Below are positions 9,439-14,529 of a stretch of 64,000 nucleotides of DNA, piece after piece (the first letter of the stretch is position 1; every line of letters starts with the position of its first letter). Where the stretch lies: the NCBI RefSeq assembly GCF_002934625.1, contig NZ_PTJD01000008.1, positions 62,001 to 126,000 of the forward strand. The letters run 5' to 3'. This DNA is from Kineococcus xinjiangensis. GTDB lineage: Bacteria > Actinomycetota > Actinomycetes > Actinomycetales > Kineococcaceae. The notes under the pieces were generated by a model. The model worked only from the letters and a program-made list of their open reading frames with translations, was not told the DNA's origin and made no database searches. The translations under genes and the position numbers were made by a program.

Positions 9439-9959
9439 GTCGTCGGGTTCTCCCGTCACCGCACCCGGGCGACGCCACCGGGAGCCGTCGCCGGGCGTGG
9501 CGCGCTCGGTCCTGTCGTCGGATGGGATGTCCCGCACCCGACGGAAGCCTCTGTCTGCACCGCGCGAGCTCGCGTCAGCGCCGCGTCGCCCTGCAGTGCC
9601 GAGGACGCCTCAGTGGTCGACCGCCCCACTCCCGCGCAGCCGCACGGCGTCGCGCGCGCCGGCCGGACCCCGTGAAAGGTGTCGGCGGCGCGCGACCGGC
9701 GCCCTGCGCAGCACGGCGGTCACGTCCTCGGACCGTCCGCCCGGTGTGGTGCTACGGACAGCCACCGGCAGTCTCTCACAGGGCACTGAGCCCACGCCTG
9801 CCGTCGACGCGGGCAGCGGAAAGCGCCTGGCGTCGCCGCTCCGCAGCGCGGTAGCGTTCCGGCGACCCTCCGGAGCGGCCGAGGGGCCCGGCTCCCCGAC
9901 GCCGCGACAGCCCCCCGGCAGCGGGTGCGGGCGCTTCCGCCGGAATCGATGGGAGAACC
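9439..9959. other. 521-bp region between rne and a divergent small gene
   Basis: This stretch separates rne (minus) from the small gene at 9960 (plus) and should hold both promoters. A TAGCGT hexamer on the plus strand at about 9851-9856 could be the -10 element for the small gene. I see no tRNA, no riboswitch and no convincing additional gene; the open frames here are GC-rich shadows. Confidence 0.5.
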
Positions 9960-10253
9960 ATGCGCGGCACGTGCAGGACACCGGCGCACGCAGCAGGAGC
10001 GGGCACGCGGCACGGCGGCCCGGTGCGGCGCGGACGCGGCGACCTCGACCCTGCGGCCGCTGCGCGCTCCCGCCCGGCCGGCACGCGCGGGATCACGGTG
10101 ACCATCTCCGTCCCCGACGACGTCCCGGCCACCGCCTCCGACCTCCTGGCCGTGGCGGACCTCGTCACCGAGGCGGCCGCGGAGCTGCTGCCAGGATCCT
10201 CCACGTCGATGGTCGTGCGCGCGGCGCGCGACGTCCGGGACGCCGACACCTAG
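9960..10253 (+). CDS. Small hypothetical protein, 97 aa
   Basis: The protein has 97 residues. The first 43 are rich in Arg, Gly and Ala and look unstructured; the rest ([24 protein letters not shown], then AAELLPGSSTSMVVRAARDV) looks like a short folded alpha/beta segment. ATG 9960 has a GGGAGAA ribosome binding site five bases upstream, which is the main reason to call it. It stands alone, with rne divergent on its left and a strong hairpin directly after it. Function unknown; a shorter form starting at an internal GTG is possible. Confidence 0.45.
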   Translation: MRGTCRTPAHAAGAGTRHGGPVRRGRGDLDPAAAARSRPAGTRGITVTISVPDDVPATASDLLAVADLVTEAAAELLPGSSTSMVVRAARDVRDADT

Positions 10254-10386: not shown

Positions 10387-11313
10387 TCAGCGGGTGGGCG
10401 CGCTGCCGCGCTCGGGGCCGGTGACGATCGGGACGCGCACCGCGTTGCCCCACTCGGTCCAGGAGCCGTCGTAGTTGCGGACCTTCTCGAGACCCAGCAG
10501 GTAGGTCAGCACGAACCACGTGTGGCTGGAGCGCTCACCGATGCGGCAGTAGGTCACGACGTCGGTGTCGGCCTGCAGGCCGGCCTCGCCGAAGTAGATG
10601 CCCTCCAGCTCCGCGCGCGGCTTGAAGGTGCCGTCCTCGGCGGCCGCCCGCGCCCACGGCACGCTCGCGGCACCGGGGATGTGCCCGCCGCGCAGGGTGC
10701 CCTCCTGGGGGTAGTCGGGCATGTGGGTGCGCTCGCCGGTGTACTCCTGCGGGGAGCGCACGTCGATGAGGGCGCCGCCGAGGTGGGCGAGCACGTCCTC
10801 CTTGAAGGCGCGGATCGCGGAGTCGTCGCGCTCGACGACGGGGTACTCGGTGCGCTCGCGCTCGGGGACCTCGCGGGTGTACTCGCGACCCTCGGCCTCC
10901 CACTTGGTGCGGCCGCCGTCGAGCAGGCGCACGTCGGCGTGCCCGAAGAGGGTGAACACCCACAGCGCGTAGGCGGCCCACCAGTTGTTCTTGTCGCCGT
11001 AGAAGACGACGGTGTCACCGCGGCTGATCCCCTTGCGGGAGAGCAGCTCCGCGAACCCCTCGGCGTCGAGGTAGTCGCGGGTGACGGTGTCGTTGAGCTC
11101 GGTGTGCCAGTCGACCTTGACCGAGCCGGGGATGTGGCCGGTGTCGTAGAGCAGGACGTCCTCGTCGCTCTCGACGACGACGAGACCGGGGGTGCCCAGG
11201 CGCTCCGCCAGCCACTCCGTGCTCACGAGGCGCTCGGGGTGCGCGTACTCGGCGAACTTCGGCTGGGTGGTGTCCGCCGGCTGGGCGCTGGTGCGGTCGT
11301 CGGTCTGCGTCAT
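10387..11313 (-). CDS. sseA: Thiosulfate sulfurtransferase (rhodanese)
   Basis: This 308-residue enzyme has two rhodanese domains, about 25-145 and 165-300. Rhodaneses transfer the outer sulfur of thiosulfate or a similar donor to a thiophilic acceptor. The catalytic loop is in the second domain, Cys256 in CRIGERSS, the form typical of actinobacterial CysA/SseA proteins; the first domain has no cysteine at the matching place (YGDKNNWW). ATG 11313 follows a GAGGAG ribosome binding site. The gene has a leader of about 380 bases that contains a SAM-I riboswitch, a 31-codon leader peptide with three Cys codons and a large hairpin, which ties it to sulfur and methionine status. Confidence 0.93.
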
Positions 11314-11596: not shown

Positions 11597-11605
11597 CAAT
11601 TCCCT

Positions 11606-11691
11606 CCATCGTCCCTGGCAGGAGCACCCGCACCCGAATCGGGGGGTTGCTGCGGCGTCGTCGAGCCAGGACTCTCGGCCGCTCTTGATGG
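11606..11691 (-). promoter_or_regulatory. SAM-I (S-box) riboswitch of the sseA leader
   Basis: The minus strand carries the S-box core in order: P1 CCATC, then AGAGCGGCCGAGAG and CTGGCTCG (P2 side), GCCGCAGCAACC (P2/P3 junction), GGGTGC closing P3, and CCAGGGAC before the P1 partner GATGG. The P1 arms at 11687-11691 and 11606-11610 are perfectly complementary. A promoter lies just upstream. The bases after P1 form a GGAGGG ribosome binding site, so ligand binding should hide it. Confidence 0.88.
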
Positions 11692-11702
11692 TTGTCGGGG
11701 CA

Positions 11703-13752: not shown

Positions 13753-14391
13753 TCAGCCGCGCGGGCCCGAGGGCACCCGCGCGAGGTCGTGCGCGGGCAG
13801 CGCCTTGCCGAACGCGACGACCGGACTCGTCCCGGGACCGGGCAGGAGCTCCTGCCCCCGGGCGTAGCCGAGGGTGAGGTACAGCGCCTGGGCCGCGTGC
13901 TGGTGGACGCCGGTCGTCAGGTGGACCCGCTCGTACCCGGCGGTGGCGGCGCGCTGCTCAAGCTCCGCGAGGACCCGCCGCGCGAGGCCGCGCCGCCGGT
14001 GCGAGGGGGCGGTCCAGACGCGCTTGAGCTCCGCCACCGCGACGCCGGCGGGGCCGGGCCCGTCGAAGCGGCGGTAGGCGCCGCCGGCCACCGGCTCACC
14101 CCGGTCCAGGAGCAGCAGCAGGCAGCCCGTCGGTGCCTCGAAGTCGCTGGGCGGGTGCTCCGTGAGCTCGCGGCTGACGGCCTCGGCGGGGTGCCCGAGG
14201 ACGTCGCGGTACTCGTGTGCCAGGCCCTCCAGCAGCGGCCGCACCAGCGGATCGCCGAGCCCGGCGGTGCGGACCTCGAGGGGGGCCGGGCCGGGCCCGC
14301 GGTCCCACCCCCGGCGCTCACCCTGGCTCCGGCGGGCTCCCGGCAGCCGGGAGGCGGTCACATCGCAGACGGCAGCCACGGACGGCACCAC
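13753..14391 (-). CDS. GNAT family acetyltransferase under SAM-I riboswitch control
   Basis: This 212-residue protein carries a GNAT domain in its C-terminal 160 residues; the acetyl-CoA loop is at VWTAPSHRRRGLARRVLAELE, followed by YERVHLTTGVHQHAAQALYLTLGY. GNAT enzymes move an acetyl group from acetyl-CoA to an amine. GTG 14391 lies right after the second SAM-I aptamer, spaced correctly from its GGAGGG ribosome binding site, giving a 50-residue N-terminal segment before the domain. GTGs further in are possible starts. The riboswitch suggests a substrate linked to methionine, SAM or sulfur, but the sequence does not name it. Confidence 0.85.
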   Translation of the reverse strand: MVPSVAAVCDVTASRLPGARRSQGERRGWDRGPGPAPLEVRTAGLGDPLVRPLLEGLAHEYRDVLGHPAEAVSRELTEHPPSDFEAPTGCLLLLLDRGEPVAGGAYRRFDGPGPAGVAVAELKRVWTAPSHRRRGLARRVLAELEQRAATAGYERVHLTTGVHQHAAQALYLTLGYARGQELLPGPGTSPVVAFGKALPAHDLARVPSGPRG

Positions 14392-14402
14392 GGTCGTTCC
14401 CT

Positions 14403-14490
14403 CCATCGTTCCCGGCGGTAGCACCCGCGCCCGCGCTGCGGGGGGTTGCTGCGGCGTCGTCGAGCCAGGTCTCTCGGCCGCTCTGGATGG
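14403..14490 (-). promoter_or_regulatory. SAM-I (S-box) riboswitch before the GNAT gene
   Basis: The same S-box elements as at 11606-11691 occur here on the minus strand: P1 CCATC (14490-14486), AGAGCGGCCGAGAG, CCTGGCTCG, GCCGCAGCAACC, GGGTGCTA, GCCGGGAAC and the P1 partner GATGG (14407-14403). The central 45 bases differ from the first copy at a single position; the P3 loop has diverged. GGAGGG follows P1 and serves the GTG start at 14391. Confidence 0.9.
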
Positions 14491-14500
14491 TTGCACCGTC

Positions 14501-14529
14501 AAGTTACGTGCCGGTCAGCCCCGTGTCGA
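14501..14529 (-). promoter_or_regulatory. Promoter of the GNAT riboswitch RNA
   Basis: On the minus strand TCGACA (14529-14524) and TAACTT (14506-14501) are 17 bases apart. Transcription would begin at about 14494, four bases before the aptamer. Confidence 0.7.

What the first reader, a model, noticed from the sequence alone, without database searches (positions are those of the whole stretch)
14391..14529. SAM-I riboswitch directly controlling a GNAT acetyltransferase
A strong promoter, a complete SAM-I aptamer and a GGAGGG ribosome binding site lead straight into the GTG start of a GNAT gene. SAM-I switches normally control methionine, cysteine or SAM transport and synthesis genes; an acetyltransferase as the only target points to an unrecognised step, perhaps acetylation of methionine, a SAM breakdown product or another sulfur amine.
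Basis: partly seen in the sequence, partly recalled or inferred. Interest (0 to 1): 0.75.

Follow-up and report, generated by a model that had tools for sequence, protein, structure and literature searches.

The report
SAM riboswitch driving sulfur-salvage acetyltransferase

Summary
A complete SAM-I (S-box) aptamer lies on the minus strand at 14493-14400 (Rfam RF00162, 52.0 bits, cut-off 44.4, E 4.5e-9). The 3' strand of its P1 helix overlaps GGAGGG, seven bases before the GTG at 14391 of a GNAT gene (14391-13753). No terminator is seen, so translational repression by SAM is the likely mechanism.

In six of six sister-genus genomes with the complete region, the GNAT orthologue is in an S-box-led operon: peptide-type binding protein, two permeases, ABC ATPase, GNAT, sometimes followed by FMN monooxygenases. 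The S-box also heads GNAT operons in a Rhodococcus and a Pseudonocardia, and SAM-IV heads one in Cellulosimicrobium. Of 79 named relatives, 68 sit near an amino-acid/cystine-type ABC transporter and 60 near luciferase-like monooxygenases; rhizobial/Devosia copies add an M20 deacetylase. This matches the acetylate / cleave C-S / deacetylate salvage of S-substituted cysteines known in Bacillus.

In this genome the operon is reduced to S-box plus GNAT. The GNAT is very divergent, has lost residues invariant in the family, and the NtaA/DmoA monooxygenase and transporter orthologues were not found. Function here may therefore be altered or relict. SAM binding and substrate are untested.

The parts
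14524..14529 (-). -35-like element TCGACA
   Evidence: Sequence read directly; 17 nt from the -10-like box; not reported by the consensus scan; similar boxes before other S-boxes of the family (by eye)
14501..14506 (-). -10-like element TAACTT, ending 7 nt before the aptamer
   Evidence: Sequence read directly; weak match
14400..14493 (-). SAM-I (S-box) riboswitch aptamer
   Evidence: RF00162 52.0 bits, E 4.5e-9; R1 model 102.7 bits; pair conservation and covariation
14486..14490 (-). P1 helix, 5' strand CCAUC
   Evidence: Pairs with 14407-14403 in 98.1% of cells over 31 distinct S-boxes
14403..14407 (-). P1 helix, 3' strand GAUGG, sharing GG with the Shine-Dalgarno sequence
14465..14469 (-). 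Pseudoknot strand CCUGG (P2 loop), pairing with CCGGG 14415-14411
   Evidence: 100% paired, two pairs with changes on both sides
14411..14415 (-). Pseudoknot partner CCGGG
14399..14404 (-). Shine-Dalgarno GGAGGG, 7 nt before GTG 14391
   Evidence: Sequence; GATGGAG(G) ends most S-boxes of the order
13753..14391 (-). GNAT acetyltransferase gene, 212 aa, GTG start
   Evidence: PF00583 62.2 bits; confident GNAT fold from about residue 37; nearest solved fold 3lod
14284..14391 (-). 36-residue N-terminal extension encoded between the RBS and the GNAT domain; no family match, predicted disordered
   Evidence: pLDDT under 50 for residues 1-30; no NCBIfam match
11603..11694 (-). Second S-box of the window, upstream of a leader peptide and a sulfurtransferase
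   Evidence: RF00162 54.6 bits
11501..11596 (-). Leader peptide [31 protein letters not shown] after the second S-box
   Evidence: Weak match to NF042934 'putative leader peptide' (18.2 bits, cut-off 27); sequence
10387..11313 (-). Rhodanese-domain thiosulfate/3-mercaptopyruvate-type sulfurtransferase
   Evidence: PF00581, 112.4 bits, two stretches

Best explanation
The leader is a translational SAM-I off-switch. When SAM is plentiful it stabilises P1, whose 3' strand contains the first bases of the Shine-Dalgarno sequence, and translation of the GNAT is reduced; when SAM (methionine and cysteine supply) is low, the GNAT is made. The GNAT descends from the N-acetyltransferase of an actinobacterial sulfur-scavenging module. 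There, an ABC importer brings in an S-substituted cysteine or similar thioether/sulfoxide amino acid, the GNAT acetylates its amino group, FMN-dependent luciferase-like (NtaA/DmoA) monooxygenases cleave the C-S bond, and a deacetylase frees the amino acid. In this genome the transporter and NtaA/DmoA monooxygenase are missing and only the S-box-GNAT unit remains. The likeliest role here is acetylation of a sulfur amino acid for detoxification, or salvage with unlinked enzymes. Shown by sequence: the aptamer, the SD geometry, and the conserved S-box/SAM-IV-led operons with GNAT, transporter and monooxygenase. Inferred: SAM binding, direction of regulation, substrate, and the operon-reduction scenario.
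For: Aptamer. SD overlapping P1 and followed within 1-10 nt by a start codon in most S-boxes of the family; no terminator found here. Sister genus: six of six genomes with the full region have S-box -> SBP_bac_5 -> permease -> permease -> ATPase -> GNAT with adjoining or overlapping genes, and in G011 (and the truncated G002 contig) the GNAT is followed directly by an LLM monooxygenase. Independent lineages: S-box heads PAAT transporter-GNAT-SBP5 transporter in a Rhodococcus (L081) and leader peptide-GNAT-transporter-LLM-LLM in Pseudonocardia (L150). It faces the LLM pair divergent from the GNAT in L097. SAM-IV heads LLM-LLM-DUF1684-GNAT-transporter in Cellulosimicrobium (L121). Wider family: 68 of 79 loci with PAAT transporter, 60 with LLM, 4 rhizobial/Devosia loci with M20 amidohydrolase. 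The transporter permease and SBP are nearest to cystine-type models. The same enzyme set defines the Bacillus S-(2-succino)cysteine / S-alkylcysteine loci (PMC12757645; PMC9706529). Other S-boxes of this genome precede metF, a rhodanese and a sulfurtransferase, so the regulon is sulfur metabolism.
Against: The window GNAT has the longest branch of 90 family members (1.86 changes per column; its place is unsure). It lacks residues that are 97-100% conserved elsewhere: R64, Y65, T119, R163, P165, E166 of the alignment are V, L, V, H, H, A here. The genome has no NtaA/DmoA (TIGR03860) enzyme above cut-off, no close transporter and no match to the PF13454 partner (an empty answer is weak evidence). 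Most family members (for example Arthrobacter and Streptomyces loci) show no S-box or SAM-IV within about 8 kb. Free folding of the leader RNA does not recover the aptamer and is no more stable than shuffles, and ViennaRNA does not show a clear change in SD accessibility. Homology of this GNAT to B. subtilis ScmL/YtmI was not tested.
Confidence: 0.55

Rival explanations
1. Decaying remnant: the S-box operon was deleted down to its leader and last gene, and the GNAT is now under relaxed selection with no real sulfur role.
For: Partners missing in the genome; family-invariant residues lost and very long branch; another S-box in the window already looks decayed (9863-9955).
Against: The ORF is intact with strong third-position GC; GNAT motif RRRGLA and core residues are kept and the fold is predicted with high confidence; the aptamer keeps every P1, P2, P3 and pseudoknot pair.
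Confidence: 0.25
2. New function: after losing its partners the GNAT changed substrate (for example methionine, methionine sulfoximine-like or other toxic amino acids, polyamines) while keeping SAM control.
For: Specific loss of invariant residues in two loops (R64-Y65 and R163/P165-E166) while the catalytic core is kept. PaiA polyamine acetyltransferase and glyphosate N-acetyltransferase are among the structural matches.
Against: No positive evidence for any such substrate; GNAT structural matches are unspecific.
Confidence: 0.15
3. Chance juxtaposition: the S-box belongs to something else and the GNAT is downstream by accident.
For: The GNAT stands alone in this window, without sulfur genes on its transcript.
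Against: The SD inside the aptamer end is correctly placed for the GNAT start and no other ORF intervenes. The S-box-GNAT linkage recurs in the sister genus and in Rhodococcus and Pseudonocardia.
Confidence: 0.03

Closest known systems
SAM-I riboswitch (S box leader, RF00162)
   Same: Full-length aptamer above the gathering score, with P1-P3, pseudoknot and conserved core
   Different: Target is a GNAT rather than a methionine/cysteine gene; no terminator, SD overlaps P1. A translational SAM-I is known from Xanthomonas campestris (PMC7270179)
B. subtilis scm (yxe) and ytn/yha S-alkylcysteine breakdown loci (PMC12757645, PMC9706529)
   Same: GNAT + FMN monooxygenase + ABC importer (+ M20-type deacetylase in Devosia and rhizobia) found together in the GNAT's relatives
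   Different: In the window only the GNAT remains; in the sister genus and some other lineages the operon is under SAM riboswitches; direct homology of the GNAT to ScmL/YtmI not tested
KPN_01854/KPN_01858 cluster (TIGR04028 binding protein, TIGR04027 monooxygenase)
   Same: Sister-genus binding protein scores 303 bits to TIGR04028; closest solved fold of the window GNAT is 3lod, a Klebsiella acyltransferase
   Different: Below the TIGR04028 curated cut-off (468.5); whether 3lod comes from that cluster was not checked
Actinobacterial Cys-rich leader peptides (NF042934, NF042933)
   Same: Follow the S-box in the sister-genus GNAT operon and before the window's sulfurtransferase
   Different: The window GNAT has none; its start codon is driven directly by the S-box SD

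Membership tests
SAM-I riboswitch RF00162 | Covariance-model score at or above the gathering score | tested here: met
   52.0 against 44.4 bits
SAM-I riboswitch RF00162 | P1, P2, P3 and P2-loop pseudoknot conserved with compensatory changes | tested here: met
   98.8% of cells paired; 7 pairs with changes on both sides; 0 of 500 shuffles
SAM-I riboswitch RF00162 | Binds SAM and discriminates against SAH | not testable with these tools
   Needs in-line probing or ITC
SAM-I riboswitch RF00162 | Expression platform (terminator or SD sequestration) controlling the next gene | tested here: inconclusive
   SD overlaps P1 3' strand and no terminator, but folding gives no clear switch
GNAT superfamily (PF00583) | Profile match and R/Q-x-x-G-x-G/A acetyl-CoA motif | tested here: met
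   62.2 bits; RRRGLA conserved
S-box-linked GNAT family of sulfur operons | Orthology or close kinship to operonic GNATs | tested here: met
   51-57% identity to sister-genus copies, other GNATs of that genus 42% or less; placed with them and with Cellulomonas-type copies, on a long branch
S-box-linked GNAT family of sulfur operons | Family-invariant residues R64, Y65, P165, E166 | tested here: not met
   V, L, H, A in the window
scm/yxe-type N-acetyl salvage locus | At least three of acetyltransferase, monooxygenase, ABC importer, deacetylase clustered | tested here: not met
   Window: GNAT alone. Met in many relatives
scm/yxe-type N-acetyl salvage locus | GNAT homologous to ScmL/YtmI and active on S-substituted cysteine | not tested
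   No sequence comparison or assay made

The most novel reading that the evidence does not exclude
Actinobacteria use SAM riboswitches of two classes (SAM-I and SAM-IV) to control an undescribed N-acetylation-dependent organosulfur salvage module, and in this lineage the module has collapsed to a single SAM-switched acetyltransferase that has taken a new sulfur-related substrate.
Probability: 0.3. Interest if true: 0.75.

Novelty: new variant of a known kind. Interest (0 to 1): 0.52.

Why it matters
It assigns a GNAT family that carries no specific name in the libraries searched to sulfur salvage through regulatory and operon evidence, and it makes the substrate question directly testable: the operons in the sister genus, Rhodococcus, Pseudonocardia and Cellulosimicrobium give enzymes, transporter and switch together. 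It would extend the SAM riboswitch regulon from making or importing methionine to scavenging S-substituted amino acids, and suggests that the acetylate-cleave-deacetylate strategy of Bacillus is widespread in soil Actinobacteria.

Tried and rejected
Fold of the free leader RNA: minimum-energy structure is not the aptamer, z +1.6, and SD accessibility computed with and without the aptamer fold was uninformative; not used as evidence. Consensus promoter scan found nothing. Idea that the 36-residue N-terminal extension is a fused leader peptide: no profile match, resemblance too weak; dropped. Idea that the own genome keeps the rest of the pathway elsewhere: binding protein only 28% identical, no NtaA/DmoA above cut-off, no match for the PF13454 protein; an M20 amidohydrolase (37%) and CE1758-like monooxygenases (up to 41%) exist but are unlinked and generic. 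Chance placement of the S-box was rejected by its recurrence. Broad literature searches found no report of SAM-riboswitch control of such an acetyltransferase; the library is open-access only.

Full report
What is there. On the minus strand, cmscan finds a complete SAM-I aptamer at 14493-14400 (52.0 bits, gathering score 44.4, E 4.5e-9) and a second at 11694-11603 (54.6 bits). A model built from 34 S-boxes of the same order scores the first 102.7 bits and finds four intact S-boxes in the whole genome plus one degenerate copy. Pair counting supports P1, P2, P3 and the kissing pseudoknot: 98.8% of cells paired, and the two varying pseudoknot pairs change together (CCTGG/CCAGG, CTTGG/CCAAG, CCCGG/CCGGG). 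The P1 3' strand GATGG shares its GG with the Shine-Dalgarno GGAGGG; seven bases later comes GTG 14391, which opens a 212-residue GNAT (PF00583, 62.2 bits). AlphaFold gives a confident GNAT core from about residue 37 and a disordered N-terminus. A TCGACA-17-TAACTT promoter-like pair ends 7 nt before the aptamer; it is not a consensus sigma-70 site.

How the switch most likely works. No terminator-like hairpin follows. The arrangement aptamer end / SD / start is shared by S-boxes of the order, whether the first ORF is a leader peptide, a rhodanese, a monooxygenase or, here, the GNAT. The simplest mechanism is SAM-stabilised P1 hindering ribosome binding, as for the translational SAM-I of Xanthomonas (PMC7270179, abstract only). 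This is inference: thermodynamic folding of this G+C-rich leader neither recovers the aptamer nor shows a clear SD change.

Orthologues. The GNAT has 51-57% identical relatives in seven genomes of the sister genus, with a clear gap to other GNATs. In all six genomes where the region is complete, the S-box heads a tight operon: SBP_bac_5 binding protein (nearest NCBIfam model TIGR04028), two permeases, a double ATPase, then the GNAT. The seventh is cut by the contig end. In G011 and G002 a CE1758-family FMN monooxygenase follows the GNAT at once, and in G011 a second luciferase-like enzyme follows that. Between S-box and operon lies a short leader peptide such as MDRTSHVAVLRRVVDLCRTGATSCR, resembling Cys-rich actinobacterial leaders at low score.

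Wider family. A scan of 84,980 species genomes returned 80 loci; one, labelled Vibrio cholerae, is probably contamination and was left out. Of 79, 68 have a PAAT (cystine-type) transporter, 60 a luciferase-like monooxygenase and 38 the PF13454 FAD/NAD(P) protein within about 8 kb, and four rhizobial/Devosia loci have an M20 amidohydrolase. S-boxes lie at the head of the GNAT operon in a Rhodococcus (L081) and Pseudonocardia kujensis (L150), and before the divergent monooxygenase pair in P. spinosispora (L097). A SAM-IV heads the Cellulosimicrobium operon (L121). Most Arthrobacter and Streptomyces members have neither, so SAM control is recurrent, not universal.

Reading. Acetyltransferase, FMN monooxygenase, ABC importer and deacetylase are the set that breaks down S-(2-succino)cysteine and other S-alkylcysteines in B. 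subtilis: the amine is acetylated, the C-S bond cleaved, and N-acetylcysteine deacetylated (PMC12757645; PMC9706529). The GNAT here is best seen as a descendant of such an enzyme under SAM control. The evidence for the function is regulatory and contextual; no substrate has been shown.

The window copy is unusual. The transporter orthologue and any NtaA/DmoA enzyme above cut-off are absent from its genome, the PF13454 partner gives no match, and the S-box is joined directly to the GNAT. The protein has the longest branch in the family tree and lacks residues conserved in 97-100% of relatives in two loops, while keeping the acetyl-CoA motif and core. So it is either retained for a changed or detoxifying role, or is on the way to decay. 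No second genome of its genus was available to measure selection.

Verdict. Observation confirmed; interpretation right in outline (real S-box, conserved link to this GNAT, sulfur-related role) but the specific substrates proposed have no support, and the chemistry suggested by context is of a known kind. Novel points are the SAM-riboswitch control, by two riboswitch classes, of this acetyltransferase module, and its collapse to a single gene here.

Noticed in passing
window 9863-9955 (+): Degenerate S-box (R1 55.6 bits against over 88 for intact ones; not found by Rfam at E up to 1) just before ORF 9960-10253, with altered core and P1; looks like a decayed riboswitch.
   Followed up: partly
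window 11694-10387 (-): S-box followed by an Arg/Cys leader peptide and then a sulfurtransferase: apparent double control by SAM and, probably, translation of the leader.
   Followed up: partly
L064-L069 (sister genus): Up to 13 S-boxes per genome plus SAM-IV elements clustered in a sulfur island with metF, metE-like, cysteine desulfurase-like, monooxygenase and FAD/NAD(P) genes; SAM-I and SAM-IV even occur back to back on opposite strands.
   Followed up: partly
L069 2518-4930 (+): S-box, leader peptide MRSTATRTPLTRRRHVDLGRLSSATCSGH, then a PF13454 FAD/NAD(P)-binding protein; in two same-order genomes this protein is fused or adjacent to the GNAT.
   Followed up: partly
L100 (WNZI01000021.1): Contig labelled Vibrio cholerae 35D carries an Arthrobacter-like GNAT/monooxygenase/FAD cluster; probably contamination.
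   Followed up: no
L076 (NZ_JADHDY010000007.1): Contig labelled Sporosarcina groups inside Micrococcaceae in the GNAT tree; transfer or mislabelling.
   Followed up: no
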